Assembly: GCA_013115145.1 (NCBI GenBank)
Contig: JAAPAO010000020.1
Coordinates: 6,845-70,844, forward strand
DNA: 64,000 bases
DNA from: Perkinsus chesapeaki
Lineage: Eukaryota > Perkinsozoa > Perkinsida > Perkinsidae
Direction: 5' to 3'
Under the pieces are notes generated by a model that did not search any database, was not told where the DNA came from, and saw nothing but the letters and a program-made list of their open reading frames with translations. The position numbers were made by a program, and so were the translations under genes. This document shows positions 292-57,656 of this stretch, one piece after another. Numbering within the stretch: position 1 is the stretch's first letter; each line of letters starts with the position of its first letter.

Positions 292-1844
292 TCAAACCGT
301 GTGCATGCGTGCAAAAAGATTCTCAGAGCTCACTCTGAAGTACTCCATAACAACAGGCACTGAATCAAAGTCCGAGTCCATCTCCTCCAACAGTATTGCC
401 CTGGGACGGTTGTCTAGAGTCATCCGATCTTGGGACTGACAAAGTGATGCGTTGAGGAAATACAAGATTTGCAAGATTTCTCAGTGCCTACTTCCTTGGA
501 TTGGTTCTTTTGCAGTGCCTGCATTCCGGCGTACCGCGCTCGAATTGCCGCGTCCCGCGCCTGTTAGAAATAGTAAATAACCCAGCCGAGATTCGAACCC
601 ACAACCACGAGCCCTATACCACCTTAGCCTTCTCAGCCTTCTCTTTCTGCATATCCTCCGACAGGGAGTGCATCTGCTCCTTAACCTTCTCTAAACATTA
701 AGACAATTGAAGTGCCCCACCCCGGAATTGAACCCACGACCTCCCAACCCACCTAGCAATTTCTTGTACTTCTCTTTCTGTGCTTCCGACGTCCTAAAGC
801 ATCAAGCTCAAGCCTATGGTAATCCCCTTATTACTTGTCATCCGTTAGTTTAGCCAAGAGCTGCTTTACTGTCTCAGACATCCTAGACAACACCGCAACC
901 CGCTGCATCTCTTGAGCGTGCTTAGCCTCCCGTGCCTGATAAAATATGAAACGGTTGATCGATTTAACGTCACACGATCACTTCCTTCGGCATATCAACA
1001 TTGCCGGGACTAATTTATTCCACCACTTGTATCGTTCCAAAAATACAGCACATACAATCCAATAAGGACGTCTTTTTTTTTGTGTCGAGAACTGTCCCCT
1101 CTCCCTCCTACCGCTCTCTGTTGCTGATGTTCTGCGTTCTCCAATACCAGATTCCCGGTATGACGCGGCTGTTGCTGTCGGAATCCTATCACAGCTGCTA
1201 AATCCTATCATTGCTCCTCATTACCCTTTCCACCAGGGCCTCCTCCTCCTCCTTTACCGCCCCCAACTCTACCACTGCTCGGGGAAGGACCTGAAGACCA
1301 TAAGCTGTGCTTCAGTAGCATACGACAAGATACTCCACTCTGCAGTGATATTTATAAATATATCTATTGACAAGAAACTACTAAATGAAGTTTATACTCA
1401 TTATTATACCGACAACTCGAAATTTAACTCCGACAAAAACAATACCAAATCTCCTCCAAGTCCAATGTGAGTTCACCTCAATTCCCAAATATCGAAATTT
1501 ACTATTCAAATCGCCTCTCAAGCTCCGTACAAACAATGGGGACTTCTCAAATGCCAACACTCGCGAACAACCATTGTACTATAATATCCAAAATGAGCCC
1601 TCCAAAGTCGAGAGCTCCATGCGACTTTTCATAGAGCCCGACATAACCCAATACTGAGCTCTATGTTATATATCACACCGACCCAGTATTACTACTACCT
1701 CCTCCGATCTGAGGCACCGTCGCTGACGTTGGTGGACTAGGTGGCAAATTAGTGACTTGCCATTTCACCTGACGCAGGTTCGATCCCCGGCAAGTCTGTT
1801 TCTGCTACCTGTATCTCCGGATGACCAAGAACAGGTTCCGCCAT
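292..1844 (-). CDS. multi-exon coiled-coil protein, unknown function
   Basis: The family is not recognised. Exons were joined on the minus strand. The likely start is the ATG at 1842-1844 (MAEPVLGHPEIQ), and a 40-nt intron (1769-1808) leads to a proline-rich exon reading VKWQVTNLPPSPP. A Gly-rich stretch follows near 1240-1300. A highly charged helical part comes next, with segments such as LLAKLTDDKTSEAQKEKYKK, LEKVKEQMHSLSEDMQKEK and ARDAAIRARYAGMQALQKN, then NRPRAILLEEMDSDF near the C-terminus, ending with TGA at 292-294. Introns at 691-752 and 561-622 must be removed because they hold in-frame stops, and splicing them joins coding phases exactly. Both are tRNA-like (see separate entries). 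Exons between 970 and 1240 are uncertain. The role is inferred only as a coiled-coil scaffold. Confidence 0.6.
561..622 (-). other. 62-nt intron made of tRNA-Lys-like sequence
   Basis: A GT...AG intron with an in-frame stop when retained. On the minus strand it contains CTCGTGGTTGTGGGTTCGA, which differs by one base from the anticodon-arm/T-arm part of the tRNA-Lys at 29048-29120. It therefore holds a consensus-like pol III B box plus flanking tRNA sequence. Splicing joins ...KEKAEKAK to ARDAAIRAR in frame. Confidence 0.7.
691..752 (-). other. 62-nt intron with tRNA-Lys 3'-half similarity
   Basis: A GT...AG intron, the same length as the intron 68 nt further along. It contains GGTCGTGGGTTC, identical to the tRNA-Lys at 29048-29120, followed at nearly the same spacing by GGTGGG, which is also in the tRNA acceptor region. 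Retention gives an in-frame TAG. Splicing gives KYKKLLEKVKEQ in phase. Confidence 0.7.
1769..1808 (-). other. 40-nt intron with reverse-orientation B-box
   Basis: A GT...AG intron between MAEPVLGHPEIQ and VKWQVTNLPP. Most of it is GCCGGGGATCGAACCTGCG, the reverse complement of a tRNA T-arm plus B box (GGTTCGATCCCC on the plus strand). Retention leads to a stop codon. Confidence 0.65.
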
Positions 1845-2009
1845 CATTGCTATTGCTGATTGCCGATTACTGAGGTGACATACAACTCAGACATTTCAAG
1901 GGAAGCAATTCAACCGAGGGTTTGATCAACAGTACTGAAGTATCTTATATCCCAGCCACACCGAAGACGCTATAAGGGGTACAATCAATCTCAAATTACA
2001 TGACTCAAG

Positions 2010-2335
2010 ATGAAGGAAGCTCGTAACTACACAAAGGCCTCTCCTCAGTAAGTCTGATCGCGAAATCTGCTCCGTTTCACAGAGAAGGACAAATCCATTA
2101 TCCACCACTGCTAACAATAGCCTTTGCTGCAGTCCCGCAACAGTCCCCCTCCCTTTACTACGTAAACTCCACTGTAGCATTGCCTTCCTCCAGCTTGCAG
2201 TGGACGCCGCTAACCTCCCTAAACACAGCCACTTACCCTTCGATGACCGCCGCCGACGATGGACCTTATATTACCCGTATTTCTGGCAATGTTGAAACAA
2301 AGCTGGCAACGATACATCTGACGGAATATTGCTAA
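2010..2335 (+). CDS. small hypothetical protein, about 96 aa, one 35-nt intron
   Basis: Exon 1 (2010-2047, MKEARNYTKASP) and exon 2 (2083-2335) join across a 35-nt intron, GTAAGT...CACAG, in matching phase. The product ends ...TKLATIHLTEYC before TAA at 2333-2335. It is rich in Ser, Thr, Pro and Ala, with no recognisable domain. It ends 5 bp from the convergent minus-strand gene that ends at 2340. The evidence is the open frame over 250 nt plus a clean intron. An antisense frame is also partly open, so the call is tentative. Confidence 0.4.
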
Positions 2336-2339
2336 GTAT

Positions 2340-4996
2340 CTAATCACCATCATCAGTCCCACAGTCACTGCGCCACAAAATTACCAATGTACTAGGTGGA
2401 GGAGCTCTAGGTGGTGGCGGTGGGGGCTGCTGCTGTTGGACGTAACCTCCCGCACCTGACGAGACTCGGAATAACATTGACATTGACAATGAGTTAAATA
2501 GGACACCCAAAAGCAAGCAGAATGACACTATACTTGGCACGGGCGCGAAGAACACTTTAATTTTCGAAAGACCGGCTTCTGATACAAATCTAAGGCATTT
2601 TTAGAATCAGATTTGAAGTGGCTCAGCGTAATGAGCGGAGATAATGACGATAATACAAACTGTCAGAGACTGACAGAGAAGCTTAATGGAAAAAGACATT
2701 ATAAGAAAAGCACCAGCTAAAGACTTTTGGTAGCACCCATTAAATGAATCTTCGGGAAGTAACCGTTGGGGTGAAATTATACAATACCAAGGTAAGAGTT
2801 GGTAAACGTGATAGTAAAGACATTCCAGATGTGACATACATTAACCACAATTCTATGACGTAGTAGTACTAAGCCAACTGAATATCACAAGATTGCCATA
2901 TTACCAGGAGCTGGCGGCGGGAACTGCGGTGGCAATGGTGCATTCATCTGCCGAGGTTGAAATCTGATTCAATGGCATCAAAAGATACGCCGCCTGCCAC
3001 GTACAACGGGTTCACAGCAGGTTGTCCCCACGGTTGCTGTTGAGCGGCTTGTCCTGCGTATCTGTAGTTCACGCTTCAACTTAAGATACTCTGCTATCCC
3101 TACTGTGCGCTTCCCCAAGTAGTGTTAGCGGTGGCCGTAGGGGACTGTCCGCCAAACGCAGCGGTTAGCTCATCATCGTCATCTCCGTACCTGTCATTTC
3201 CATCATGCATGCATCAAGCTAAGATTCTCCTACCCAAACTGCGCTGCCATATCATCATCATTGCCGACGTCCTGTTTAGGTGGCGGAGGTTTGGCCGGAT
3301 GGAAGCGCTGCCACCATGGAGTGTTGTCTTCTGCTGCTTTGTCTGCCGAGTTACCTGACCCAGCAGAATCAGCAGCACAGTGCAATCTCCGACACCGCTA
3401 ACCATAAACGACGCCAAGAGCAAATAATATAAAAGATTCTCAAACGGATTTGAATCTCTATAAGATCGTAAAAGAGAGATATTAAGTCCTTTATTGTCCT
3501 ACGTTCTTTTCCTTCCCCTTCATCAGCGCCTCCTCCTCCACCACCGATAGGGGAATCTTCTCCATACCCCAGAGGGTCCTCGTCGTCACTTACTCCACTA
3601 TTACCCATTTGATTGTATGGGAATGGCAGTTCGCCATCTGACCTGATCTCATACCGACTTTTCCACAATCTTCCCAGGAATGCTGACTACCCATCGTCCA
3701 TCGCCTCGGTTGTTGGGACCTCGTCCTCTCGAGGAGCCGGTGGCTCCGGTGGGGACGACTTGTCATGGGATCGTGACCGAGATCTGCTGGCCATTCGACC
3801 CCTGTGTCCTCCCCCACCTGGATAAGATTATATTAACGCGCTAGCCTGGATTCGATCCCGATGCCTTTCGATATGTAAAATGCCCCTCTACCGCTCCGCT
3901 ATTACCATCCCTGCGTGACCGCTCTTCTCTGCGATAATCGTCTCGATAATACGATTCTCTATCACCGCCGCCGCCGCCTCGACCTCTCCTACTCCCTCTC
4001 GGTGATGGACTTCTATAATGACGGTCTCTTCTTGAGGACCCTCGAGGCATTACCAAGGAGCCGAAACAACAACAACAGCAAGCAAATAAGATTGCCCACA
4101 TCACAACAGAAATCTCGCGAATGGCAAGGAAACGTTGTTACCACCTAATCTGGCCGCGCGCTTTATTCCCCCTCCGTTTGGATTCTTCCATCTGTGATTT
4201 AACCTGGGCGAGGGTCTCCTCCGTCCAGTCCTGACGTCCTTTCTGCCCCGCAGGAACCACCAAATGTCTCGAAGAACGCCCTTTAGCCAACTTGCGCTTC
4301 TCTCGTTGCTTCACAATAGCTAAGATATAACAAATCATGCACGCATCAACCCAGGATACGGCATTACAAGGGCGCGTCTTCGAAGCGAATTGCTCAGTAA
4401 GTCTTGTGAACCTGAGACGAAAAACTCATCTAGAAGTTTGTCACTGAGAGCATTAACGTCTCATAGACCGTTTGCCTGCGCGGACCAAAGCAACATGTGC
4501 CATCATAGACGTCATTATTTCCCTAACATTGAATTTATTCGTTGAAAGGTTGAACCATTAAAACCATTCAAACGACTACGGCTGAGTATACAATCTCGCG
4601 TTAGTTCAACAAACCACCAATAAGTGCCTAGTTATTCTATACAAGCGTAATGGCGTCCTGCAATCGGTACAACAATTCAGTACAGGTAGCGTCTTGAGTT
4701 ATCTAGTACCACATTTCATACCGCTCTCTCCTCCAAAGTTCCGAGGGACTAAAGCCAATTACATGTAAGCCTTCTCAGCTTTATGCTTCCTTTCTACCCG
4801 CCGCTTCTCAAGCTCACTAGGCGTCAGCTTCGCACTCGATTTTTCTGATAAAGATGAACCGTATGACCGCGCGCCATTAAATTCTCAGACTATACCGACT
4901 TTTCTGTACAGTATTTGTCTGAGCCGCCTCCTGTTGTCGTTCCTCCTCTACTGCCCGCCGGTAATCATTTGATAAGGATGATGACGCACCAGTCAT
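2340..4996 (-). CDS. SR/RGG-rich, P/Q-rich nuclear protein (splicing-related?)
   Basis: A long multi-exon minus gene. The start ATG at 4994-4996 opens with MTGASSSLSNDYRRAV, followed by Lys/Glu-rich exons such as LTPSELEKRRVERKHKAEK. The next exon reads VKQREKRKLAKGRSSRHL and contains GRQDWTEETLAQVKSQ. An Arg/Ser/Gly-rich part follows (PRGSSRRDRHYRSPSPRG, SRSRSRSHDKSSPPEPP), then acidic exons (DDEDPLGYGEDS, NTPWWQRFHPAKPPPP). The C-terminus is Pro/Gln-rich (WGSAQYAGQAAQQQPWGQ, YVQQQQPPPPPP). Several introns of 41-55 nt have matching phases. One at 3818-3905 carries a B-box-like GGGATCGAATCC. RS and RGG tracts are typical of splicing or RNA-binding factors, but no RRM was seen. The exact exon set is uncertain. 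Confidence 0.55.
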
Positions 4997-5757
4997 AACT
5001 CAATTTACTAATGCAACACACACCTCGTGGGAATACCAACTTGCGATCTTATTATCACTTGGACTTCCTCAATGCATCTCACGATCAGACCAACCGCGCA
5101 ACAGCCAGTACGGTGGTCTGAATTAGTTAAACTGAACTAATTTAGTTTTGAAAACTACTGTGGAATTGAATGTGAATCTTGCAATTAGATGATCGCTGCT
5201 CTTCTATCTCGCCACGGTAGCACTCCTATCAACCTCCTAGGAATCTTTCGTCCGGCCCATGGGGAAAAGTACCGTCAACGGAACTCGCAAAATTCACACC
5301 GTAAAGATGCTGATTATCTGATCATATCCATCAAGTGCTAGTCTACGTAAAGTGCATCTGCTCACTACAACGTGGAAATTCGGCCTTCCTTGCGGTGAAA
5401 CGGGCGCGAAATCTGAAGACAACTCGAGATACTTGGGAAACTGCAGTGAGATCGAAACTTGTCTTATCGAACGATCAATGCATGTCACAAAGGAAGGTTA
5501 GCTACAAAGTACTATAAGGACCGCTTTGACGAATCCAATGCCGGGACAGAATTCGAAGATCAGGCGCTGCTAATAACGTTGGGAGACTGGACACCTCGAG
5601 CAAGGGGAATCAAAGCCGAATGAACCCGGGAGTGCAGGACCATTCCGGCCAACCCGGAAATGGGGTTCTTTCCCTCATAGATTTCTATCGCTGTATTGAA
5701 TCACTAAAGTTCGAACCGAGGGTTCGATATGACCGTGTATTTGCCAGCTAATATCCA
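4997..5757. other. intergenic region between divergent genes
   Basis: No convincing gene. Short overlapping frames at 5294-5517 on both strands have no support. AACCGAGGGTTCGATATG near 5715 is another B-box-like string, and a similar one (AACCGAGGGTTTGAT) lies near 1912. The stretch probably contains both 5' regions of the divergent genes that start at 4996 and 5758. Confidence 0.5.
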
Positions 5758-8654: not shown

Positions 8655-8848
8655 CCGTTACGAAGTTTAGCATGCAATTTATAATCCTTACCCGGTTAAT
8701 GTGGGCTGTTATGATGAAGATGATGCAGCACGAACAACATGAAGTCGTGAATGTTACGCATACGCTGTTGAGTTCACCCACAGTGGGAGGAAACGTCACG
8801 CGCCGTAAAATTACGCCAGGCCCGTTGTTGCCACCATGATGGTCTGGA

Positions 8849-9689: not shown

Positions 9690-9780
9690 GTGTCCATACC
9701 GCTCTTTCGTCTAATCTATGTTGAGTTACCTAGTCGCCATACACCCAGATCCACGCAGATCGCCAGTACCCGAACGTTCG

Positions 9781-14557: not shown

Positions 14558-14575
14558 CAGGGGGCACCACACTGG

Positions 14576-26738: not shown

Positions 26739-29700
26739 TTACCAGTCTGAATCGACCACTTCAGAATCCTGATGGCTGGCGAATTCATCCGAGTCCCAAC
26801 CATCGGGGTTCTCCTCCGCGACTTGGCGGGGCATGTCATTCGTCAGGCCAGAACCAGCGGCCACACCAGAGCTGGGAGATGGTCCCCTCTCGCTTGTTAA
26901 TTCTGCAGAGCCATCTTGAATGCCTCCATCGTTGATGTGGCTGTGGGAAGCACTAGACGAAAGCCCGATAGATTCGAGTGATGCTTCTCCGGGCGGGGAG
27001 GCTGCAATCCTGATCTGACGAGCAAATACTCGAGCCACTCTGTAAATATCTTACATGCTGTTCTTTCATATCCACAGCTTCAAGAATATCCTGCCCGCTA
27101 CTAACACCCGGCGCAGGTCCGTCTGACTTCTTAGGCACTACTGAACCCTCAATAGACCGCGCTGAGTCCTGAATGAGTGTGAGCTTCGAATACCTGCAGG
27201 TCCACTCACGGCTATAGGGGGGTCCACCTGGACGGTTTTGGTAGGTGGAATAGTGAAGTCAATTTGATGACTCTCGTTGCCGACACGCGAGTTTGCTATT
27301 TTATCTTCTTCGCGAAGACTGCCGACTATCTGGAAGCTTCCAGTGGAGCTGGGAGAGCTCTTCGTTGGACGTGCGATCTCTTGCTCGTAAGTGTGGTCGT
27401 CCTGAAGGACTCAGTTGGTTCTAGTTATGCGCGAATGAACGACAGACACTGGCGCACTTTGCGTTCATGCGACGACGAACTTGAAGGAGCAGCAGTCCAG
27501 TGAAGCTCAGTCGAGGAGTGACCTCCAATCTCTCTGTTGTCGGGGTGGTTGCTCTGTTGGCTACTTGCCGGTGAGGAACCAGCTGTTTGAGTAGGAGATT
27601 TCCGGATAGACACATGGGACCATCCGGGAGCACCCTTCTCTGAACTTGAAGCCCTCCCTGGGAGCCCTTTGGCCTTCTCCACCCGCAGCTGCAATTCAAG
27701 TTCATCTATCTGAAATGAGAACAATTCGTAATAGCGATCAACAATTCGTAATCCCCAGTCACCTTATCGAGCAGGAGTTGCCTCTCCTCCTCAGCAAGAG
27801 CAAGGTGCTGATTTGCTTCCAGTTGTGCCGCTTGAACACTCTGCAAGCGAGCCTACTGCAGAACATCTACACACTAGTATGGGAACTTCCCATTGGGAAG
27901 TTCGGAGTGCTACTACCTTCCAGGCTTGTAGCTTAGCCTTCTCTCTTTCGGCTTCTGCCAAGGCCTCCCTCGCCTGTCGCTTTTCTACCTCGACTTCAGC
28001 CCTCATACGAGAGCATGCAGCCTCAACCTGCACTCAGACTAAAATGATCGTAGAATTGATAATCGTATGATTGCATATCATTTGTAAAATAACTTGCAAT
28101 TCGATAAGCCAAACGACCCCAGCAATGTGGCCAGGAGTGACTTGCCGCTAACCCGGAGGAGAGTCGGAATTCTGGTACTTACGTACTTGCTCGTGGCTCT
28201 TACCTCTTTTTGCTTATCTACGGCAAGTTTATCTCTCAAGGCAGCCACAGAATCAACTTGATGTTTGATCTCCAGAGCTTTACCTTGCATCTCAGCCTCC
28301 CGTGCAGTAACTACCACATTGTTCTCTACAGCGACTTGCATTCGTAAGTCCCACCATTCACGGTATCAATGGGGACTTTAGGGGACAACAGCGGGGCCTA
28401 CGCGACTTTAGTTTTTCCTTGAAGGACTCTCGTTCCGACTCCAGCTCCCTCAGCAATCGATCCTTGGCTGATATTTCTCGCCTCTCCAGCTCGGTCTCTC
28501 TCTTCCTCAACTTGTCAATCTGATAAAGTGTTTTCCGACTACTATCATCATCACTGCACAACACCTCAGCATGTTGCTCTTTAACCTCTTCAAGGCGTCT
28601 CTTGGTGATCGTCAGCTCATGATCGATCCTCTCATTAGCTCGTCTGTCGGTCTCTATCGTGGCCTAAGATAATTGTCGCCAGTCGGGCTCGGGCAAGTGT
28701 GATAAGGAGGACCTCTAAAACACGGCTCTGTCTTCGCGCTTCCTGTAGGCTTTCTTGCAATTGCTCCACTTGCGCTGCCAATGAATCCCGTTCCTTTTCA
28801 ACAGTCATTAATTGTTGTCCAGTACTCATGTGGGTGGTGTGGACCGACTGTAGACGAACCTACTGTTCAATGCTGGCCTTCGCTTGCACAGGTACTCGTT
28901 GGATGTGACCTGCTCGCTATCTAGACATGCCCTCATCCTGTCAATTTCATTCTGTTTGTCAACCAATGAGCGCCGTTCAGCTTCCATCTCTGCCCTTAGC
29001 TTTAGGGTGGCAAGCTCGACCTGAACGACGAAACGGAAAGGATGAAACACCCACCGTGGGGCTCGAACCCACGACCACGAGGTTAAGAGCCTCGCGCTCT
29101 ACCGACTGAGCTAGACGGGCAACTTGGTCTATTAGATCAGGCGACTCCGTATAGAGACCCACACCGCCCATAAAGCACTGCACGATCACACCCATTTACT
29201 TCTTTATTTTTCAGGTCTTCGAATTGTTGCCTAACAGTCCGTAATTTATCCTCTCTCTCCTGGACTTCACGCTTCATTGCCTCAATCCTCCTCTCCAACT
29301 GCCCCAGTTCACTTTCCCTCGCGGCCACTAACATTAAACCATCACAACCCCCTCATCCTACCATCCCTCACATGCGCGGGCCTTCTCTCGTACGGCGATG
29401 CGTTCATTCTCGAGCTCTCGAAGCAGCGACTCTTTCGTCGATATAGCTCGTCGATCAAGTTCGGCTTCTTTCATTCGCAGCCGATCAACCTGTTGAGGGC
29501 CTCAACTAAACATATAAACCCGAAGTTCCCCCACCGTCCGTTGCTCCTGTATTCTGAATTTCGCTTCGCGTTCTTTGGCTTCTCTCTCCAAGTCCTCCCG
29601 AGCTGCGCGTAGCTCGGTTCGCAACTGCGCTGCGGCTTCCAGTCGAGCATTGGGGAGCTCAATAGACCTACCACAGTCTGCTGCCCCAACGGCTACGGTT

Positions 29701-30570: not shown

Positions 30571-33131
30571 TCACGTGACAGCGCCGAGCTCTATGCTCTT
30601 GAATTTTCGTCGGCTACCGGGCAGGTCATCGTCCATTAATTTCTCGGCAACCTGTGCGGCCACGTCCTCAGTGGAGTCTATGTCGAGCTGCCCTCGTATC
30701 GCTCTGGTGATGGCTTCAACCACCTTGGTTCGAATCTCTCGGACCTCCGTTTCTGACGTGTAGACCTGTGAGCTGCTCCTCCGAGCCAACCATAAATAGA
30801 GGTCATAAATTTGACACACTCTTTCCAGGTGGAACACAGCAGAGACCGTCGTCGGCACTTCGGCGTCGAACACTAAACTCTCCGGCAGAGGCACCTGCCT
30901 TGTCGCTACCAAGGACTGCGCGAATGTTCTGAGGCCACTGAGGACGATTGGGTCATTGGGGTCAGCTGGAGATGAGCAGAACTCGACTATCTGTTGAAAC
31001 GTGAGCCCCTCGATGTCAGAGAGGCCCTTGGCAATGTTGACCATCCGGGCCGACCAAGTCCCCAGGTAGCAGATCGGGTCTGTGTGAGCGACCTCAGCGA
31101 AGGTCTGGAAGATCTTGGCTGCTGGAACGTCTCTCTGTCCTAAGGCAGCTTCCGCCTCGGCACTAAACGCGTTGAGCACGCTGCTTTCGGGAAGTATGGC
31201 CGCTTGGGTGACCTCATCGGTAACCATCAGGTGAGCAGGCACCTCGAGCTCAAAAATATCTTTAGACCACTCCAGGCCGAAGCCTTGGAAGAGTGGAGCA
31301 AGCTGATCCTCATGCATGCAGGCGACAACGCCTCCCTCGGCCCCAGCAGCCAGGCCGTAGCGTCCCGCACGACCTCCAATCTGTCTGAACTCGGTGGGCA
31401 CGAGCTGCCTTGTCTCTACTCCGTCGAATTTGTGAACGGTTGAAAAGATGACTCGACGAATATTAAAATTGAGCCCGAGCCCGATGCAGTCGGTGGCCAC
31501 GAGGACATCAAACTCTTGCCGATTGAAGCTGTTGATTTGGTCACGGCGCGTCTCCGGTGGCAGAGTCCCATACACCACACAGACGCGCCATCTAGTGGAT
31601 CGCTCAATGTCGGCCTTTACTCTGAGATGATGGGAATGAACGAGCACGTGCGTTCAAGCTCACCTCATAATGTCCCATCGACTGAAGACAACGACACAAT
31701 CACCTCGTCGGAGACTGCGGTAAGACCCGATGGCTTTGCCAGAAAGGAAGAGCGGACTTAACCGAGAGTATCTGAACTTCGATGACGTTCGTTTGGTGGA
31801 GTGGATGCGGGGCGCTACGGTTTGTGGCGAAGCACAATGTCGTTCGGACGGTACTGCCCCAGGAGGGCCTCCACAAGTCCAGTGGCTCTCCCGTCACCAC
31901 ACAGATGTATCTCTCGGGCTGGGAGGGCCAATATTGCCTACATGCCAATACTAGTCACGATACGCCAATACGCCTTACTCGGGTCCAAGCACCACCGCGC
32001 TCGCGATCACCAACTAGTTGAACTTCGTCGATGACGCCAATATCGTACTCGACGCTGCCCGGGCCGGGAGACATCTCGACCGTGCAAGACAGATGGCTGC
32101 CAACACCAGCCTCGCTGTCTTCAGTTGCCCTAACGGGTTCGGTCTCTGACGCCTCTGATTGCTGCCCACGTATGTGCTCCTGGAAATACCATGAATAGTG
32201 ATATGGGCTAACTGACCTGGCCGGTGAGAAGGTCAGCATCGAGCCCCATCGCCAGCAGGTCCTCATAGCATTGCCATGCCAGCAGTCGAAGCGGACCGCA
32301 GTATACACCACGTCTGAGTAACAACAATATACCGCGGCAGTGTAAATCAATGATCACTACTCAGCTTTCCTCAAAGCCTGCATGGCACTATACGTCTTGC
32401 CACTATTAGTAGGTCCTTCGTGGAAATGTATAACGCGGGGGAAGGAGGGCCTGACCGACCAGGGCTGATTCATGATAGGGAGATGGCATGTCTTACGTCT
32501 TGGTCTCCAGTTTCCGAAGGTCTGCCAAATGGCGAAGATTCCTGTGGGCAAAGACTTGTCCCTGGCACTTGTCTTCAAGGAAGCTGGTCACGGCCTTGGC
32601 CACCTCTCTCAACTTCACCGGCAGTTCGGATGAGCGAGTATCACCTTGGGCAAAAGTATCATCAACCAGGCTCGCTCGGAGGCCTGCCACAAGCTGCTGG
32701 CCCTGCTGATACCTGCATGGTCGGAGCAAATGGAGATCCGTCCGCTGGCGATGGGTTTACCTGAGGTAGAGGTCGAACCGTTCCCGGGTATTCTTGTCCT
32801 TCATAAGATGCATGGGGACACTGTGGAGGTCCTTTGTGCCGCCGGCATCACCAAGACTGTCATACAGACGCACCAGCTGGCCTATCCTCGCATGCAAGGC
32901 TTCAGACTCGATGTCGGTGAGCTCAGGACTACCACAGTAACTACGCGGCTTACCTTGCTGGGCATAGGCTTACACTTCCGAGATGCTATAGTAGCTAGGG
33001 GCAGACGACTCCCACAAGCTTTCAACGGGCTGTGCCGCAGCAGCTGATACCCGCCCCCGAGGCTGAGCGCGAGAGGATGCTACTGCCGTGGCTGCTGCCC
33101 GACGCATCAGTGCCTTACACCGCACTATCAT
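30571..33131 (-). CDS. SUPV3L1: SUV3 mitochondrial ATP-dependent RNA helicase
   Basis: Degradosome-type DExH RNA helicase of mitochondria. The start ATG at 33129-33131 opens MIVRCKALMRRAAATAVASS, a clear import leader. In-phase exons give VIHFHEGPTNSGKTYSAMQA (Walker A), VYCGPLRLLAWQCYEDLLAM, IGVIDEVQLVGDRERGGAW (DEVQ box), LALPAREIHLCGDG and YSRLSPLFLSGKAIGSYRSL. RRGDCVVVFSRWDIMR, VLVATDCIGLGLNFNIRRVI and FRQIGGRAGRYG (motifs V-VI) follow, and it ends FKSIELGAVT at 30571. The motif order and spacing match SUV3 fully, apart from an insertion between GQ and the DEVQ box (EASETEPVRATEDSEAG). Introns are mostly 37-55 nt. Its neighbour upstream ends 79 bp before its start. Confidence 0.93.
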
Positions 33132-33209
33132 AGTAATGATGATGACCCTGTCGTCATAGTGGGGGACTTTGAACGCAACGAGACCGGCTTTCTTAAACCA
33201 CATGGTGAT

Positions 33210-37568: not shown

Positions 37569-39298
<1,730 letters not shown>

Positions 39299-43123: not shown

Positions 43124-43660
43124 CTAACTCAGTGAGTTAGGGTGCCGAACTAGACTGTAAGAGTCAGGATTCACCCAAGCAGCTCCACAGCTAATGCCGA
43201 TCTGGATCTGCCAGCTGTCAGCTGCCGAAGCGATGAAACACACATGACAAGCTCCACCAGAAAATACATTTAAAATATCTAATGTTTGGATCGAACCTGG
43301 GATTACACCGAGTACGAGTCCAAACATCAAATTGCAACTTGCATCATGCAAGTTGCATGTGCTGCGGTAACATCAGTATTGAACGAACCTCAAGCAAAGA
43401 TTGTGGGCAACTGCCTAACGAGAGACTCTGAGTTGATGATGATTTTTCTGACCGGTACTGACAGGTACCACAGGTACTGCAGGTACTGCAGGCAATGGAT
43501 GGTTTCTGACCCACAAAACTGTACTGTATAGTGTAAAACGATGGAAATCCGATACTCGCGTGCAGGAATCTACGTAGAGCCATCCAGTGTTCGGCGAACA
43601 CAGGAACCTGCGTGAGCAGGTCATGCCGGAGGCACCATGTGTGAATCTGAAACCACGGAG
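43124..43660 (-). CDS. partial paralogue of the neighbouring propeller-like gene
   Basis: The minus frame reads IHTWCLRHDLLTQVPVFAEH, nearly identical to IHTWCLQHELLTQIPVFG in the gene at 44478-46943, and further on SEKSSSTQSLSLG against SEKSSTQSLSL. The last exon encodes VFSGGACHVCFIASAADSW and stops at 43124. An insertion of short GGTACYTGC-type repeats separates the conserved blocks. No start or upstream exons were found before 43660, so it is probably a truncated duplicate, though the last exon still looks coding. A candidate intron at 43279-43325 is tRNA-like. Confidence 0.4.
43279..43325 (-). other. candidate 47-nt intron with B box and matching ends
   Basis: GTTTGG...TTAG on the minus strand contains AATCCCAGGTTCGATCC, a B-box-like string. 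Its ends form an inverted repeat, ATGTTTGGA (43282-43290) against TCCAAACAT (43319-43327). The frame is also open if it is retained, so its splicing is less certain than for the others. Confidence 0.45.
43333..43357. repeat. perfect 12-bp-arm palindrome
   Basis: TGCAACTTGCAT (43333-43344) and ATGCAAGTTGCA (43346-43357) are exact reverse complements around a single C. It lies 6 bp from the 9-bp inverted repeat flanking the B-box-like candidate intron. Confidence 0.8.
43452..43494. repeat. short tandem repeat of CAGGTACTG type
   Basis: Four to five imperfect 9-bp units (GACAGGTAC, CACAGGTACTG, CAGGTACTG) lie inside the duplicated segment and are absent from the related copy near 45860. Confidence 0.7.
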
Positions 43661-44180: not shown

Positions 44181-44477
44181 ATTTTAAAATTTTTCGCCCC
44201 GGCTCCGCCGGCGCTTCAATTCCCAGCTTACTCACCCCAGGCTTTCAGCTCCTCACACTCCCATGAACTGAACATACCCCGGGTTAGATTCTAACCTAGA
44301 ACCTTGCCCATGTCAGGTAGCCCTTATAGCACTAGAGCAATCTGGCTACACAATTCGATGTCGCATCGACTCAATACTTATATTACTTATAACAATATCC
44401 ACGCGAATCACAGAACACGACTCAGTAATTTCAAGCAGGGATCACATCTCAATGAGAGAACAATCTTATACTCCTCA

Positions 44478-47626: not shown

Positions 47627-50600
47627 TCACCGATTTGGAAGGCAATGGTCAGCGCGTTCCTGGTAGTCTCGTGGATGCTCCTCTCCGCGGTGCTTCGCTC
47701 CTCGGCATTTATCCTTCAACTTCCTGAGTTGTTCCCGAGAGAAGAACACTTGCTTCCATGCCCTAAGTGAAGCAATAAAACGCCCAAGCCCAACGCGGAT
47801 GCTCACATTAAAGCTCGTCGCTTCCGCAACAGATTTTGAACGAGATAAGAGTTCATCTCCTGCATGTGCCGCGCCTCCTCGACTCTTTCCTCCTCCACGC
47901 GCCTAGCCGAGTCGTGATCTGAAATGTCGTCAATGCGCTGCTGATTGCTATCACGACCGCTGCGATAGCTTACCGATCCAGGAGGATATATCATCCTGGA
48001 GAGATATGTGATCCAATCTGTCAACAAGGCCATTAGGCAAATCCGCCATCATCAGCTCATCATCGAGTATAGCTCTTCGCTCCCCCACAGTGGGCTGAGC
48101 TGGCTCCTGAAATATCTCTTCGTAAGATCAACAAAACTGAGTCCGCAAACCTCTATCCGGCGCTTCCGCCGAGGCCGCCGGCTCCAAAGCTCTGATTCGT
48201 CACCACTGAAAACTTCGCACTCGTCGCGCACAATGCTCGGAGGCACGGGTAATGACGGGGCAGCAGGAAACGGTTGCTGCATTTCGGCTACTGTGGTCCG
48301 AGGGACAGCCTCAATAGAGGGCTGCGGAGTGACGGGTTCAGGAGCAGGGGCCTTTGATAAAACAGCTTGCGCCACTGTCGGTTCCACCGGTGCGCTGGGC
48401 GTAGACGACTGAGGAGGAGAGACTAGTGATAGACGGGCCCGTCAACAAGGGGAAAATCACCCCCAGCCTCGGCAATGCCCACGCACGAGCTTACCGTGAA
48501 AATCGAGGCCCCAAAGAGAGACGTAGATGGCTCGTCCGGCTCTACGGGTCGTGCACTATCGGCAGGCGTTGGTTTGATAATATTTGTCGGAGCGAATAAC
48601 GGCGAAGCGGGAGCTTTGAGCTCCTCAGCCGCAACGAGATGCTCTTCCACAGGGCCTTTCGCGTCTTTCGAGATAAGCGCTATCTTCGGAATTACTTGTG
48701 CCTTGGCCTCGGGAGGCACCACTGGCTTGAGGCCTAGGCAAAGCACCGCAGGTGCTCGGTGATAGAGGCACCTGCTTACCTTCGAAAATAGGAACCTTTT
48801 CTGTAGTCGGTTTCTTCGCAAGTCTAGGCGACTGGGCACCCGAGGACCGCGACGGAGACAAACGCGCTGCCGGGGACGTTGCCTTTTCACCTTCAGTCGC
48901 CTGCAAATAGAACATGGGAACCAATACGCCAGGCCGTTCAAGCACTTACAGCAAACGGCCCGGTGGTAAGTGGTGGAGCCGCGGCTTTGCTCATGACAGG
49001 TTGGAAAGGCGATACAGAAGCCTTGCTAGTAGCTACATTCTTCGCACCAAAAGGGCTTGAGGAAGGCGCTGCCACAGTCTCGCCAGATACAGCTCCGAAG
49101 GGACTGGTGGAGGACCCCGAAGCGGGTTTACTTGCCGCTCCGAAGGGCCCGCTGGTAGTAGTCGGAAACGCGCTTGCAGTCTTGGCAAATGGTCCCGAGG
49201 ATGCCACCTTCGCGCTAACCCCGAAAGGGCTACTGGACGGTGTTAAGGCTGTCACATGCCCAAATGGAGATTTACCCTACAACGAGTGGCGAACAATCGC
49301 TGAAATTGCACCGCCACTATGGCCTACCGTAACTGCTCCCGGATGCACCGCACCGAAGGGAGTAGCTCCTCCGGGTTTTATCGCTCCAAAGGGAGTAGCT
49401 CCTGCTGATTGCGCCGCACCGAAGGCAGTAGCTCCTGCTGATTGCGCCGCACCGAAGGGAGTAGCTCCTGCTGATTGCGCCGCACCGAAGGGAGTAGCTC
49501 CTGCTGGTTGAACAGCCCCAAATGGAGTAGCTCCAGCCGGTTGCGTCGCAGCAAAGGGGGTCACGTTCGCCTTGGGCAATGCGGTGGCTTTATTGGGCAT
49601 CAGTACAGCTATTTTTTCCTTCAGGGGTTGGGGGGCCTTAGTCGGTCGAACGGGAGGTGGAAGGGACCGTCGGACTGGAGGAGCCGGTCGCATTGGCTTC
49701 ATCACAAATGAGCCAGCAAGTCTGAAGCAGCAGACATCCACACCGCAGGGCAGTGAGGTTTTCCATCACCCCGGGTCTATGGCGCCGATGACGATATCCT
49801 TCAAAGTGACACCCGAGTCCAACAGTTGATCGTACTTCCGTGCTAATATAGGGTCGACCTACAAGGAGAATGAGATTGCATAGAAAATACAAATCGTAGT
49901 TCGGAGTGGCTCGCAATACGGAAAAGGCAGAATCCGAATATGATACAAATGTAACGAAGTACGAACTACAAAGCTTATGTAATGATACAACAAGGGCAAT
50001 ACCCGTCATCTAGTCTATACCTTTCAGAAACATTTTTCGCGCACAAGGCCACCAATTCAGAGAATAAAGAAATCACTTTCGCGAAGAAGGATTACAGCTC
50101 CACGGATAAAGACAGCTATTTCACTTTTTTGAGCTCAGCTAGTTTCAATGTATACAATATAGGTCGGTTTTATATAGGAGCCTTACAGTTTGAGGGAAAG
50201 TGCACCTCATGACGGTGTGATCAGCATTGACGTTCTCTCCCAGACGCTCGGTAAACTCTTTACGAAGTCCCCAAGTCCACGATTCTGGCACTTCCTGATG
50301 GGTCTGGTGCACCTGATATAACATAATCTATACAAGGAAGATTAATCTACTTACCCAATCATCGCTAGATAGCCACCATTTATACGGCAGCCGTAGCATC
50401 CTCGGCGGTAGAAGGCACTCGATCCCCTGCGGAGAGAGGAGCTCGTCGGCAGAAGGGTCAACGTCGAGGTTGGTCGTCGAATCCATCACCTACACCGTAC
50501 AGCTGACCTAGTCAGGAAAAAGGGGGCTCACTCGGCAGCCGTGGTACTGCAAGAATTCAGCGCACATCGAGGGGTCCTCCAAAAACAGCATCTCTTGCAT

Positions 50601-52153: not shown

Positions 52154-52232
52154 ACCCGCAACCACCAGCGGGAGAACTACATCAGGTAGCGCTCGTCGTC
52201 CCCGAACACAACAACAGTGAAGACACTCATGC

Positions 52233-52863: not shown

Positions 52864-52973
52864 GAGAACGCTGTGCGGCCGCAAGGTGCTAAAGTACCGC
52901 AACACAAGGCGTATTAAGTGTCAGCTCCCATTGGAAATCAATTTCATGGCGCGTGACGTCGCCGCTTCATCTA

Positions 52974-55900
52974 TTAATCGAATTCCACCTCATCATCATC
53001 ATCCCAATCGTCATAAGATTCCTCTCTCTCCAGTGTTGCCTCCCTCTGAAAAGTGATTACCATACAACCAGAAAAGGCGCGGAGACTTCGGCGGTACCCC
53101 CCAGCAGGCCACCCTAGTTAACAAGCCCTTGAAGTAGCTGGTTCGTAGTCTTTAACAGCTCAACAGTTCCATTGCCAAACAGTCTACTATCTTCTGCCTA
53201 CCTTCCCTGTTGCCAACCCCGTGCTTGTACGCTGTACTGCTGCAATCCTATCATCATCTTCACTGCCCTCTGACGGCGGTGTAGGACATTCCTCTGGAAT
53301 TGACTCTTCATCGCACTCTTCTTTCGGGGACACTGAGCAATATCTTCACTCAATCCACCGAGGCCCTACTTCCTACAGAGATCTCGCTGGGCGACCAGTG
53401 CTAGATGGGACGAGGCCGGCAAGGGCTGAAAGACAGGACCCACGATTGCGCCCCAACTAGGCGGTTACCCACCGCCGCCGTTGGCTTCTGGCTGGCCTTC
53501 TGTTGAGTGTCTCCTTCAGTGCCGAGGTTCACTACAATGCGCGGCTTCACGTCCGAGTCTCCTGCGCCGGAAGAGACGGTATTGCTCGCAGAGCGCTACT
53601 TCGCCCTACTGGACCTGTCTCTATCCTCGTTAGCTCGGGAACACTCTGCCGCACCAGAGCCAGTTGGCTTGGATGGCTGTGAGTCCCGAAGCGACGTGGA
53701 GAAAGTCATAGGAGCGTCGGCGTCGTAATTCCCCCGCGAGAGGTCCAAGTCGCTACTCAGCCCCGAAAGTTCATCGCCGTTGCTCCACCGTGGCACTGCC
53801 GGAGTAGCCGGTGACGCGGATGTAGGACTCTCTTCTATGAAGTATGCGTGCTTCTGTTGTGCCCTTACACCCTCGACAGGCGATACAGCTTTCTCTGCGC
53901 TCGAGCCACGATCGACTGACCCAGTGGGCGCCGCAGCGGCGAGTGGCTTCTCACCATCCTAGGAGGAGTTGGTTAAACTACTCTGTAATACACTGAGAAG
54001 CAACGTACCTCTTTAGAATTGCCAAGAGCTGCCACACGCTCCTGCGGCTGCTGCTGCTGCACCCTTGTGTTCGGTAGCGCCACTGTACTCTTATCACTGA
54101 TTGGGGCAGCATGAAGCCGCTGGTTCATCTACAATGGCTCGCGTGGTGTTGCTATCCACTGACGTGATGCATTTACTTCGCTTGTGGAGCCAGCTTCGCC
54201 AGAAATAACATCATCGCTTCCCTTCAGCTTTCCCAGCATACCAATTTTCGCCTAATAATGCGGAACTTCCAACAGCTAGCATCCCCAAAGAGAATCACGG
54301 CAATAGTCGTCCACCTGTGCCTTATCATCAACACTCTGCCATCGACGCAGACGGTCCACTTCCTCGAGCAGTTTCTCTGACTGTCCCCTCAAGTCCCTCA
54401 CCTCCCCTTTCACGCTATCAACGACCCCCTTCAACTTCCTCATCTCTCCCACAGCACCCTCTACGGTGGTGATGCCCTTAACCCTATCGACCAAAGCCCT
54501 CTCATCAACCTCCAGCTTATCCACTCTCCTCTCAATTATCTCTTCCCATCCATCCTCCTCAGTATACCTCTGCCACAACTCCCCCAGCTTCTCTCTGTCC
54601 TGCACCAAGCTCTCTTCTATCATCGCGATGACATCTTCTCTGCCTTTGTTCCTCCACAGTTCATCAACCTTTTTGCCGTCCCTGGATATCTTCGCCTCAG
54701 CCTCCTCGAGCCGGTCTGCCAACCCATCAACTTTTTCCTCGATTTCTGTTACTCTGCTGCTTCGCTCCGCTGTAACCGACGACCTCATTTGCTCAACGCT
54801 ACGCTGGAGCCCCGAGAACTTCCGCTCCAGCTCTTCGCCTACCATACCCACTTTTCCGCCGCACTCCTTGTCCCCCAGCAATTTTCTCAGATGCGCTTCC
54901 ATCTCTCCCAGCTTGCCGTTGCGCCTATTAACATCCTCAACGACCCCCGCCAAATTGGTGGAGAGCTCATCTGAAAGTATCAACGTAACCACGAGACCCA
55001 CTCGGGTCGAGATCGGAATACAAATCGGTAAAGAATACAATACACAGATTGTTCGTTTTTGAAGAGCCCCACCCTGCAGCTCCTTACGACGAGCGAGTTA
55101 GGGCTCGAGCCTCATATAGCGCTCGAATTCAAACTACTTTGCAACAAAAAGTTACAGTAGAGGAGTCCCTCCATGGACCATAAATTCATAGACTGAACCT
55201 TTACATACTCATTTACATTCATAATGAGTATGTAAAGTACCAGAGAGTATGGTGGGAATAACAGGCAATGCGGGAAAGAGATGGTATGTGTCTCCAAGAC
55301 AACGGACAAGATAGAGAGCTTATACAGTAAGACCTTTGGAAAACTCCCCAACGACGAGCTGCGAGAGGTTTCAACGCAACTGCAGTAACTTCGAAGAGTA
55401 ACTCGTAGCTTACCTATCATTGCCCTTTGCTGAGCACTCTGTGTCTCCAATGCCTCCACCGCGGCCTTCACCTCGCCCACATTCACGGCTGCTATATGCC
55501 TCCCCCCTCCTCCTCCACTGTCCATCCTTCTCTGCAACCTTTCTATCGCTTCCGCCTGTCCACTGATAGCCTTCCTTAATCTAGCCATTGAGTCCTCAAC
55601 ACACTCTATAGAGGACCCCATCCGTGGCGATATTCCCTCCAACTTCTTCTCTATTTCTGATATCCTCATTAACATTGACCTCTCCACGCTTTCTTGAAAC
55701 CCATCAAGCTTCGCATCCAGCGCCTTCTCAATGCTCTCCAGCCTAACCCTGAGTGCACTGTCCACCGTACTGAGTTGGTCCCTAGTAACACTCTCGCCAG
55801 AAGGACCACGGTGCCCCCAGGCATCACTGGTGCAGGGCGACCTGTCGCCTTCCACGAAGCCATCCATCCTAATCGACTGTCGTCTGCACTCGTTCTTCAC

Positions 55901-56225
55901 CGCTTCCATCTCCCTTTGTATCAGAGCCACTTCGCTGGCCATTCTCCTCTCCAGAGCTGCAATGGCATTCCCCGCTTCACTCGAGGCCCCTCTAGCAGCT
56001 GCCTGCTGAGCCTGAGTATGGAAGCTGCGTATCAAACTGCTTCTGTGGGGCCACTTCTTTTATTCGATGGAGCTCGTGTATAAGACCATCTATCGCCTCC
56101 TGCTGGCGTAGCATAGCCGAGGCCACATCGTACCTGAGCCGCTTGAGGACTGCCCTCAGCTTGCCCCTCGCCCAGGAGACGTAGCTCATCACTGCTTGCG
56201 AATGACTACAGTACCAACGCACCAT
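52974..56225 (-). CDS. long coiled-coil protein with acidic tail
   Basis: The family is not identified. The start is possibly the ATG at 56223-56225 (MVRWYCSHSQAVMSYVSWAR), then KLRAVLKRLRYDVASAMLRQ. A 42-nt intron leads to ARGASSEAGNAIAALERRMA and heptad-rich segments (ALDAKLDGFQESVERSMLMR, DSMARLRKAISGQAEAIERL). The second half (54276-54960) is dense coiled coil (EEKVDGLADRLEEAEAKISR, VDSVKGEVRDLRGQSEKLLE). Later exons are Ser-rich (LSSDLDLSRGNYDADAPMTF) and acidic (EECDEESIPEECPTPPSEGS). The end is EESYDDWDDDDEVEFD at TAA 52974-52976. The acidic Trp-containing tail resembles that of the OFD1-like protein. Exons between 53000 and 54276 are incomplete. Confidence 0.6.
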
Positions 56226-56285
56226 ATCCGTTCGCAATCAGTAAGTATCAATTTTTATTATATCTGTCGGATACAGCAATATTAA

Positions 56286-56709
56286 CTAATTAGGAGGGCA
56301 GGAGCACAAGGAAGCCGGGACCAACGAATGCCAAGCCGTCGCTCTATCTGTCTCTAGTGGATAGCGGTGCCCGTCGCACAGTAGCTCAGTACGAGACTGT
56401 TGGCAAGCCGTAGGAGGGAGATAACATACGTCGCGTTCCCTGGTGCTGATGCCGATCTAGGGGAATCAATTGAATGACGTCGAGTATAGGAGCGATGGAC
56501 CTGCAGCAACCCTTGCACCCGGGTTCGATCCCTGGCACAGGCACCTCGACAAAAGGCATTTTAGAAGCTGCCGCCCCGCCGAAGAGTGACGTCGGTAGGT
56601 CTCTGGATGATATCGACCGCGGAGGTGACCGTCCAATCTCCATCAGGTGCTTATCAGTCTCTGCCAGTATTTTGGCCACAGCATTCCTATCATACCTGCA
56701 GTCCGACAT
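56286..56709 (-). CDS. hypothetical protein, Ser/Arg-rich, with tRNA-like intron
   Basis: The ATG at 56707-56709 lies one base after the TAA of the upstream gene. It encodes MSDCRYDRNAVAKILAETDK, SPPRSISSRDLPTSLFGG and SKMPFVE. After the 44-nt intron 56501-56544 it continues with VHRSYTRRHSIDSPRSASAP, then a 33-nt intron, SRTELLCDGHRYPLETDRAT and CPPN at TAG 56286-56288. No domain is recognised. It may belong to the coiled-coil gene downstream if a further intron removes the stop. Confidence 0.4.
56501..56544 (-). other. 44-nt intron with reverse-orientation T-arm/B-box
   Basis: GTGCCT...CTGCAG. The plus strand reads CACCCGGGTTCGATCCC across it, and the same 17 bases occur on the minus strand in the intron at 57462-57506. 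The unspliced frame is also open, so removal is likely rather than certain. Confidence 0.6.
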
Positions 56710-56710
56710 T

Positions 56711-57656
56711 TTAGAGGCAAAACTGGCTAACTCCTACATAGACGATGCCAGTGAAGGCGAAAGGCCTAAGTTCGGGGAATATTGCATAAACGGGCTGCTC
56801 TTCCCTAGGGAACGGTCGTCCAACTAAAATCACTATTTGTTCGGAAACAACGTCATCCCATCGGTAGCTTCGCCGTGGCGGCCGCTGACCAGCGTATTCT
56901 GACACCTCTATCCATGTGGCTATCAACGACATGTTCTCTATGTAAAACTCTTGCCAGTAGGCGTTCCCTTCCTTCGTCTACTGCTGCCTCTTCTTCCCCA
57001 GTCTCAGCCGTCACCGTATTCCTCCGCTGTGCCCCTCGCTCCCTCAATGGTCTTGTACCCTCCATCTTTCGCTGGCCAGTCTGGTGACCGCCGCCACCAG
57101 TAGCCGTTGCCGTTCGTTTGTGTTGCTGCAGCGCTATCGGTTTCGGATCTTTAGTGTTATCGAATGTCCTTCGCCAAGTGTTAATTGCTTGCTCCTCTCC
57201 TACATACCCAAATTCCTTCACATTCGGCATCGTTCGCGCAAAGTCCTTCGCCCGCGGGCAGTCTACACCGATAAGGTCACTATCTTGCCACCTCCCATGT
57301 ATCCTAAGCGACCACCTCGGCTCCCCACAGGAACTCGATCCTTACCGGGAGAGTACGTCTTTGGCAGCCTCAGGAAAAATCTCAGACGGAGGCTCTCTGT
57401 TAGTTCTCACGAACTTCGTGCCGATCTCAACACGCTTGTAGAAGGTAGTCCCCAAAGCCTGCTAAAAATGCATGCTGCGGGGATCGAACCCGGGTGGATA
57501 ATTCACCTTGGCCATCGTAGATAGACCGACCAACTCCGGCACTTTGTCATATGCATATACCCTAGGCTGTTTCTGGTTCACCAAGGTCGCTGGGACCTCC
57601 TCGCCTTCCTTCAGTGGATACAGTGAATGTTGCACTTTGTACCTCCCTCTGGCCAT
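56711..57656 (-). CDS. hypothetical protein, about 290 aa
   Basis: The start ATG at 57654-57656 gives MARGRYKVQHSLYPLKEGEE, then YDKVPELVGLSTMAK. The 45-nt intron 57462-57506 (in-frame stop if kept) leads to QALGTTFYKRVEIGTKFVRT. A second intron leads to LIGVDCPRAKDFARTMPNVK, then INTWRRTFDNTKDPKPIALQ, a Gly/Arg-rich stretch (ATGGGGHQTGQRKMEGTRPL), YAGQRPPRRSYRWDDVVSEQ and PELRPFAFTGIVYVGVSQF, with TAA at 56711-56713. The basic N-terminus could be an import leader. No family recognised. Confidence 0.5.
57462..57506 (-). other. 45-nt intron made largely of a T-arm/B-box
   Basis: GTGAAT...TTTTAG. On the minus strand it contains CACCCGGGTTCGATCCCC, a perfect B box with the T-stem 5' strand. The length is a multiple of three but an in-frame TAG at its end forces removal. 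Splicing joins STMAK to QALGTTF. Confidence 0.75.

What the first reader, a model, noticed from the sequence alone, without database searches (positions are those of the whole stretch)
561..57506. Short introns built from tRNA T-arm/B-box sequence: possible tRNA-derived introners
At least four short introns that must be spliced (in-frame stops or forced phase) consist largely of tRNA-like sequence: 561-622, 691-752, 1769-1808 and 57462-57506. Three more are likely: 56501-56544, 3818-3905 and 43279-43325. They occur in five different genes and in both orientations. The shared core is GGTTCGANNCC with T-stem bases. Introns 56501-56544 and 57462-57506 share CACCCGGGTTCGATCCC in opposite orientations. 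Introns that descend from a mobile element are known as introners; a tRNA or tRNA-derived SINE source, with B boxes kept at 40-62 nt, is not one I know described. Inference: tRNA-like fragments were inserted into exons and recruited as introns, or B boxes are being kept for a function.
Basis: partly seen in the sequence, partly recalled or inferred. Interest (0 to 1): 0.88.

Follow-up and report, generated by a model that had tools for sequence, protein, structure and literature searches.

The report
tRNA-derived introns spreading in Perkinsus
In a Perkinsus genome, hundreds and perhaps over a thousand very short introns are made of the back half of a tRNA-like sequence, and in two gene families only the copy carrying such a piece has the intron, which suggests that a tRNA-like mobile element makes new introns.

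Summary
The window is from a Perkinsus genome (35.4 Mb). All seven stretches carry the T-arm/B-box sequence; my gene finder calls four of the seven introns. Genome-wide, GGTTCGANNCC occurs 1877 times against 287 for the reversed control; 2 of 30 sampled strict hits are tRNA genes.

GTAAG lies on the side a splice donor should (160 sense, 117 antisense) more often than on a wrong side (28). In loci with a called gene, 12 of 14 motifs are intronic, against 21% of control positions. Conserved proteins support splicing for three introns. PFOR and K+ channel paralogs read through the site, so these introns were probably gained.

One element end is fixed at the tRNA 3' end plus a T-run, like a pol III terminator; the other varies. 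CCA follows in 0 of 78. The B box is intact, but T-stem pairing is random and A boxes are rare, so the sources are not working tRNAs. Best reading: a tRNA-derived, SINE-like retroposon acting as an introner. RNA-seq, clear target-site duplications and a full-length source are missing.

The parts
561..622 (-). 62-nt intron with sense T-arm (core 589-599 on -, GGTTCGAATCT, 1 mismatch)
   Evidence: called exactly, phase 0
691..752 (-). 62-nt intron with sense T-arm (core 724-734 on -, GGTTCAATTCC, 1 mismatch), same predicted gene as 561-622
   Evidence: called as 691-737; acceptor the same
1769..1808 (-). putative 40-nt intron (GTAGCAG...GCGTCAG on -) with antisense element (core 1777-1787 on +)
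   Evidence: motif; not called by the gene finder
3818..3905 (-). 88-nt intron with a longer tRNA-like sequence (A-box-like TAGCGGAGCGGTAGAGG; core 3848-3858 with 1 mismatch)
   Evidence: called exactly, phase 1; both frames that read open when spliced meet a stop if the intron is kept
43279..43325 (-). possible intron GTTTGGAC...CATTAG with GGTTCGATCCA (1 mismatch)
   Evidence: motif; not called
56501..56544 (-). possible 44-nt intron GTGCCTGTGCCAGGGATCGAACC...CTGCAG with antisense element (core 56522-56532 on +)
   Evidence: not called; reads open both spliced and, in one frame, unspliced
57462..57506 (-). 45-nt intron with sense T-arm (core 57480-57490 on -) ending CATTTTTAG
   Evidence: called with acceptor 3 nt further, 57459
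29047..29121 (-). tRNA-Lys(CTT) gene, the only tRNA gene in the window that Rfam supports: comparison, not part of the system

Best explanation
These introns are copies of a tRNA-derived, SINE-like retroposon population that behaves as an introner. A pol III-type transcript with a B box and a 3' U-run is copied into DNA, usually truncated at its 5' end, and lands in exons in either orientation. The insert, often only about 35-45 nt, is then spliced out. In sense, the donor often falls in the old anticodon-loop or variable-loop register (GTAAG), and the terminator T-run serves as the pyrimidine tract before AG. In antisense, the donor lies at or just beyond the old tRNA 3' end. Shown here: the sequence family, its place in introns, the fixed 3' end and variable 5' end, the intact B box without stems, and absence of the intron in paralogs for two genes. 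Inferred: pol III transcription, reverse transcription, and splicing itself, for which there are no RNA data.
For: Counts: 1877 v 287 and 539 v 17. Donor on the right side 160 and 117; on the one wrong side tested, 28. Motif in an intron in 12 of 14 loci with a called gene v 21% of control positions, p=5e-7; in 12 of all 27 loci v 11%, p=1e-5. Junctions lie in gapless alignment to solved homologs: PFOR L070, K+ channel L007, and USP7-like L073 (an 8-residue gap ends 5 residues upstream). CCT-theta L098 is compatible, with a 2-residue insertion just upstream. Intron absent in all six PFOR paralogs found, four checked as DNA, and in two K+ channel paralogs. Flanks-only pattern AGGTC-N21-GGYATTTT: 75 hits v 1; after dropping one 4-copy sequence, 70 of 71 have the T-arm in register. 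Fixed 3' end: TTT after base 73 in 36 of 78, CCA in 0 of 78. GT-to-G52 spacing peaks at 17 (18 of 87) and 10-11 (18 of 87). Related copies: 23 pairs with >=13/15 identity v 3.9 shuffled, at most 12, in flanks that look unrelated by eye. The genome has reverse transcriptases: 56 RVT_1 matches.
Against: No RNA-seq. No clear target-site duplications: identity runs through the junctions are only slightly longer than in other introns (>=5: 6 of 45 v 21 of 583; p=0.017), and no other offset stands out. The A box is seen in few elements (16 of 113 v 8 in the downstream control at 4 bits; 3 v 1 at 8 bits), and no full-length source family was found. One 82-nt element is single-copy by BLAST. Rfam's tRNA model finds none of the elements in the 20 loci and the window tested. 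Elements are discrete, with no decayed tail, which an old neutral family should show. In 13 of 27 loci no gene is called at all, so their intron status is open. Of 81 non-tRNA cores in all loci, 48 are called intron, 10 exon and 23 neither.
Confidence: 0.6

Rival explanations
1. Capture at double-strand breaks: fragments of tRNA genes or of their transcripts were stitched into exonic breaks by end joining and became introns, with no dedicated mobile element.
For: Variable 5' ends, no clear target-site duplications, diverse sequences, and no relative found for the one long element searched.
Against: Fragments of working tRNA genes should keep paired T stems: 49:65 pairs in 19 of 71 v 23.3 shuffled, and the other outer pairs are no better. 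Subfamilies exist. The 3' end is strongly preferred.
Confidence: 0.15
2. B boxes are kept in place: TFIIIC or another DNA-binding factor uses these intronic B boxes, as at extra-TFIIIC (ETC) sites, and selection in situ preserves them.
For: B-box core 93-99% intact at G53, T54, T55, C56, A58 and C61 in a set not selected for it, while the T stem is random. Both orientations are common, which suits a DNA-level role. No decayed tail. Mostly no A box.
Against: C48, GGYA and the T-run sit in fixed tRNA register without being part of a B box. Does not explain why paralogs lack the intron.
Confidence: 0.12
3. Ordinary SINE or tRNA-pseudogene insertions into introns that already existed, later trimmed to the usual 40-60 nt.
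For: Introns here are mostly short (median 47-48 nt), and insertions into introns are tolerated.
Against: The element can fill nearly the whole intron, down to 41 nt (GTAAGTGGTCGTGGGTTCGAATCCCGGCTAGGGCATTTTAG). Paralogs have no intron at the site in the two families tested.
Confidence: 0.09
4. Artefact: chance T-arm-like words and miscalled introns.
For: My introns come from a home-made gene finder trained partly on the loci it was tested on. One 'T-arm intron' of 45 is a miscall inside the window's real tRNA-Lys.
Against: Genome counts against controls, wrong-side donor control, conserved proteins across junctions, and YAG|G inside the T stem in 1 of 20 sense v 16 of 22 antisense introns (part of this could be gene-finder bias).
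Confidence: 0.02

Closest known systems
Introners (Gozashti et al. 2022 survey, PMC9860276; section 7 and term passages seen)
   Same: A sequence family dispersed as introns of many genes, with element ends near the splice sites; survey families run from 5 to >2000 copies with median lengths 30-654 nt.
   Different: The survey heads its section 'from DNA transposons'. It reports TSDs in 49 of 130 and TIRs in 72 of 177 families that could be judged, while others lack both. Its main text has 0 occurrences of 'tRNA', 'SINE' or 'Perkinsus'. Here the body is tRNA-like with a B box and a pol III-like terminator; TSD evidence is weak and TIRs were not looked for.
Amoebophrya introner elements (PMC7789003; passages seen)
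   Same: Short repeated introns in a related alveolate parasite lineage.
   Different: Those have 8-20 nt inverted repeats, 3-5 nt direct repeats and non-canonical splice sites. The introns here were called as GT-AG with tRNA-like bodies.
tRNA-derived SINEs (recalled)
   Same: tRNA-like B box, T-run end, dispersed and diverged copies, truncation.
   Different: No consistent A box, no identified full-length master or LINE-related tail, and many copies lie in introns that they largely constitute.
Extra-TFIIIC (ETC) B-box sites (recalled)
   Same: B box without A box.
   Different: These have a fixed tRNA-like 3' terminus and lie in introns; occupancy unknown.

Membership tests
Introner | Introns of many unrelated genes share one sequence family | tested here: met
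Introner | Element ends coincide with or lie near the intron ends | tested here: met
   Sense: acceptor 6-11 nt past base 73 in 14 of 23. Antisense: donor 0-13 nt from base 73 in 16 of 22 (also 64). Distances are partly shaped by the GTAAG/CTTAC search patterns for some loci
Introner | Creates a new intron at an otherwise uninterrupted coding site | tested here: met
   PFOR: 6 of 6 paralogs found read through, 4 of 4 fetched gapless. K+ channel: 2 paralogs gapless; of 3 remote ones, 1 alignment stops at the site and 2 have a gap at or near it. CCT: of 3 remote hits, 1 reads through (31% identity), 1 begins at the junction, 1 does not reach it. Direction (gain, not repeated loss) is inferred by parsimony
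Introner | Target-site duplication and/or terminal inverted repeats (present in only part of known families) | tested here: inconclusive
   weak excess of identity at the junctions; second exon starts GT in 22 of 45 v 169 of 583. TIRs not tested
Introner | Spliced from mRNA | not testable with these tools
   no RNA-seq; protein homology supports it for L070, L007 and L073 and is compatible for L098
tRNA-derived SINE | Internal pol III promoter: B box | tested here: met
tRNA-derived SINE | Internal pol III promoter: A box at tRNA spacing | tested here: inconclusive
   16 of 113 v 8 downstream control at 4 bits; most copies lack it, as 5' truncation would give
tRNA-derived SINE | Many recognisable copies of one full-length consensus | tested here: inconclusive
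   the one 82-nt element searched is single-copy; short subfamilies only
tRNA-derived SINE | Partner LINE and shared 3' tail | not tested
   RVT_1 matches exist, not classified
Functional tRNA gene (RF00005) | Cloverleaf with paired stems | tested here: not met
   no element in 20 loci and the window matched RF00005 even at E<=10 (weak tmRNA matches at E 5.9 and 7.4 touch two of them); outer T-stem pairs at or below shuffled
ETC/TFIIIC site | TFIIIC occupancy without pol III | not testable with these tools
   sequence only

The most novel reading that the evidence does not exclude
A pol III, tRNA-derived retroposon is an intron factory. Its reverse-transcribed, 5'-truncated copies land in exons and are spliced because the tRNA body itself offers splice signals: GTAAG in the anticodon-loop or variable-loop register as donor, and the terminator T-run as pyrimidine tract. 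Hundreds to over a thousand introns of this genome arose this way. This would be an RNA-mediated origin of introners, besides the DNA-transposon origin now described.
Probability: 0.5. Interest if true: 0.9.

Novelty: new variant of a known kind. Interest (0 to 1): 0.82.

Why it matters
How spliceosomal introns arise is an old open question. Where the origin of introners has been shown in the survey I read, it is DNA transposons; other families have none assigned. A large intron family with a tRNA-like body would add an RNA-mediated route and show how a common cellular RNA gene can be pre-adapted to become an intron. With many copies in one small genome, the steps (insertion, donor recruitment, orientation bias) become directly testable by comparing Perkinsus species and strains.

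Tried and rejected
Working tRNA genes inside introns: rejected for the elements tested. cmscan at E<=10 gives no RF00005 match to an element in 20 loci and the window, and T-stem pairs are random.

Mature tRNA (CCA end) as source: not supported. CCA follows base 73 in 0 of 78, TTT in 36.

A recent homogeneous repeat: not supported by BLAST of one 82-nt element (the tool skips very common words).

RNA-level T-arm function in the pre-mRNA: unlikely, since both orientations are common (160 and 117 donor-side hits; 13 of the 100 printed sense hits are exact tRNA-Thr).

Ortholog check of the window's 561-752 gene: none of 158 candidates reached E<=0.001, and there is only a sub-threshold DUF1978 match.

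Limits of the counts. One search scored 63 of 3361 tRNA candidates, so 62 tRNA genes is a lower bound. Only one of the two possible wrong-side donor patterns was run. Palindromic cores (18 of 78 rows) are read on both strands. One search stopped with an error after printing part of its gene list; the genes for the protein checks came from that part.

Rows dropped before counts; 4 identical copies, which I take for a real tRNA (not tested), leaving 71 of 75; 60 of the 100 printed antisense rows used; rows that looked like real tRNAs, palindrome mirror reads or too short were left out by eye; 8 introns matching real tRNA genes dropped from 53; one miscall in the window tRNA-Lys stayed in the 45 (and in the 20 sense introns); 13 exact tRNA-Thr rows dropped from 100; the antisense lengths were typed by eye from the 100 printed rows. 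L057 (a real tRNA) dropped from 28 loci; a slip in my script left window elements out of the profile, while two tested elements (L023, L028) were in it; one search repeats the test without any of them, with the same five hits. The same slip makes 78 rows of 81; 3 palindromic cores dropped.
Full report
ORGANISM AND SETTING. The window's ammonium transporter is 80% identical to one of Perkinsus marinus, and the next best matches are other Perkinsus proteins, so the genome is taken as a Perkinsus. It has 35.4 Mb in 884 contigs; the window is C113:6845-70844. One tRNA gene in the window, a tRNA-Lys, is found by ARAGORN and Rfam; ARAGORN with introns allowed adds a 117-bp tRNA-Asn at 32271-32387 that Rfam does not support, and I ignored it.

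THE OBSERVATION. I wrote a small gene finder (codon usage, donor and acceptor matrices, intron length; it does not score intron interiors) and trained it on loci of this genome. It settles on MAG|GTRAG ... YYAG|G with median intron length 47-48 nt. 1769-1808, 43279-43325 and 56501-56544 are not called.

MORE THAN CHANCE. Whole-genome counts: GGTTCGANNCC 1877 v 287 for the pattern read backwards; GGTTCGANNCCNGG 539 v 17. Palindromic sites are counted on both strands; I see 5 such pairs among the 100 places printed. Of 30 strict hits in the 28 loci sampled, 2 are tRNA genes; one search gives at least 62 tRNA genes, a lower bound. My estimate is of the order of 1,400 intact cores beyond chance and tRNA genes (arithmetic, not a call); how many are introns is known only from samples. 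With a profile built from other loci, 3 of 174 introns in the window and 2 of 112 beside tRNA genes score 14 bits or more, and the next best score is 6.7; shuffles of the same 286 introns give 0.1. Low-stringency scanning of the same 135 kb shows no excess.

THEY ARE INTRONS. GTAAG within 30 nt upstream of the core: 160. CTTAC within 30 nt downstream (antisense donor): 117. GTAAG on the wrong side: 28 (the other wrong side was not run). In 27 loci fetched only by the strict motif, the motif centre is intronic in 12, exonic in 2 and without a gene call in 13, against 11% intronic for positions 80-390 nt away (p=1e-5). In the 14 loci where any gene is called it is 12 of 14 v 21% (p=5e-7). Over all loci, including those fetched by donor patterns, 48 of 81 non-tRNA cores are called intronic, 10 exonic and 23 neither. 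Proteins spliced at T-arm introns align to solved homologs without a gap at the junction: pyruvate:ferredoxin oxidoreductase (L070), a K+ channel (L007) and a USP7-like protease (L073; an 8-residue gap ends 5 residues upstream). CCT-theta (L098) has a 2-residue insertion just upstream. The 44-nt L070 intron would shift the frame if kept.

GAIN. Searching the genome with the PFOR segment finds six further copies, 60-71% identical, all reading through the site without a stop. DNA of four was checked and aligns gaplessly; one has AAG|GTT at the empty site. For the K+ channel, two copies (61% and 57% identical) read through. Of three remote ones, one alignment stops at the site and two have a gap at or near it. 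Of three remote CCT hits one reads through at 31% identity, one begins at the junction and one does not reach it. One gain is simpler than several losses, but the direction is inferred.

ANATOMY. In element orientation the profile reads AGGTC(44-48) ... GGTTCGA..CC ... GGYA(70-73) TTTT in fixed register. A pattern made of the flanks alone, AGGTC-N21-GGYATTTT, gives 75 hits v 1 in the control. After removing one 4-copy sequence, 71 are left: 40 have the perfect core, 24 one mismatch, 6 two, 1 no core. G53, T54, T55, C56, A58 and C61 are 93-99% conserved. T-stem pairs are no better than shuffled (49:65 19 v 23.3; 50:64 32 v 34.4; 51:63 25 v 26.6; 52:62 49 v 49.9; only 53:61, 69 v 68.0, is slightly above), and positions 66-69 are near random (28.7% mean pairwise identity). 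So the sources keep a B box and a terminator-like T-run but no cloverleaf. Rfam's tRNA model finds none of the elements in 20 loci and the window. A boxes at tRNA spacing are rare. The longest forms (78 nt in L028, 82 nt in L005, 88 nt at window 3818-3905) look to me like whole, degenerate tRNAs.

ENDS. The 3' end is fixed. In sense introns the acceptor is 6-11 nt after base 73 in 14 of 23. In antisense introns the donor is 0-13 nt from it in 16 of 22, most often 6 (5 of 22). CTTAC is flush with base 73 or one base off in 23 of 100 printed rows. The 5' end varies, but GTAAG donors cluster at 17 nt before G52 (18 of 87 rows), the anticodon-loop register in which tRNA-Thr reads GTAAG, and at 10-11 nt (18 of 87), the variable loop. 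Sense introns rarely have YAG|G, a ready acceptor, inside the T stem: 1 of 20 v 16 of 22 antisense. Part of this could come from the gene finder ending introns there. Target-site duplication evidence is weak.

FAMILY STRUCTURE. Near-identical pairs exceed column shuffles (23 v 3.9, on 60 rows chosen by eye), and a GTAAGWTGYNNGGTGCCGGGATCGAACCTG subfamily sits in contexts that look unrelated. Introns are either clear members or not: of 587 introns without the exact core, 8 score 14 bits or more and none lies between 8 and 14. Recent spread or continued constraint could both give this.

MECHANISM AND RIVALS. A retroposed pol III transcript, truncated at its 5' end, explains the fixed T-run end, the variable other end, both orientations and the B box without stems. 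The genome has reverse transcriptases. Break-repair capture, in-situ B-box function and insertion into old introns remain possible at lower probability.

LITERATURE. In the held library, introner + tRNA + intron gain gave 6 papers, Perkinsus + introner 1, Perkinsus + introns + tRNA + genome assembly + splice 14, intron gain + SINE + tRNA-derived + spliceosomal intron 1, introner + retrotransposon + dinoflagellate 6, Perkinsus + genome + transposable elements + introns 12, introner + polymerase III 1, introner + SINE 4. I saw the listings, read section 7 and term passages of PMC9860276 and passages of PMC7789003 and PMC11782384. None of what I saw describes tRNA-derived introners. The dinoflagellate introner paper of Roy et al. 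2023 was not read (seen only in a reference list), and subscription journals are mostly missing from the library.

Noticed in passing
window 1-138: Three perfect copies of a 46-bp tandem repeat at the window's left edge.
   Followed up: no
window 49344-49558: 6.5 copies of a 33-bp repeat, partly inside a 227-codon open frame.
   Followed up: no
G000 C145, C61, C664, C315, C25: Pyruvate:ferredoxin oxidoreductase segment in seven places, three of them on C145.
   Followed up: partly
L015-L017, L025, L027 (C440): Cluster of tRNA-Arg genes, mostly TCT, on both strands.
   Followed up: no
L061, L062, L071: tRNA-Thr genes carry GTAAG in the anticodon loop, a near-perfect splice donor; 13 of 100 printed hits of the donor pattern are this exact sequence.
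   Followed up: yes
L028, L029, L032, L033, L036, L037, L071, L090: Sequences of real tRNA genes fall inside predicted introns of 89-148 nt; these may be gene-finder errors.
   Followed up: no
L005, L007, L008, L063, L076, L085, L099: Several predicted genes hold two T-arm introns at different positions; in L008 one is sense and one antisense.
   Followed up: no
window 32271-32387: ARAGORN with introns allowed proposes a 117-bp tRNA-Asn that Rfam does not support.
   Followed up: no
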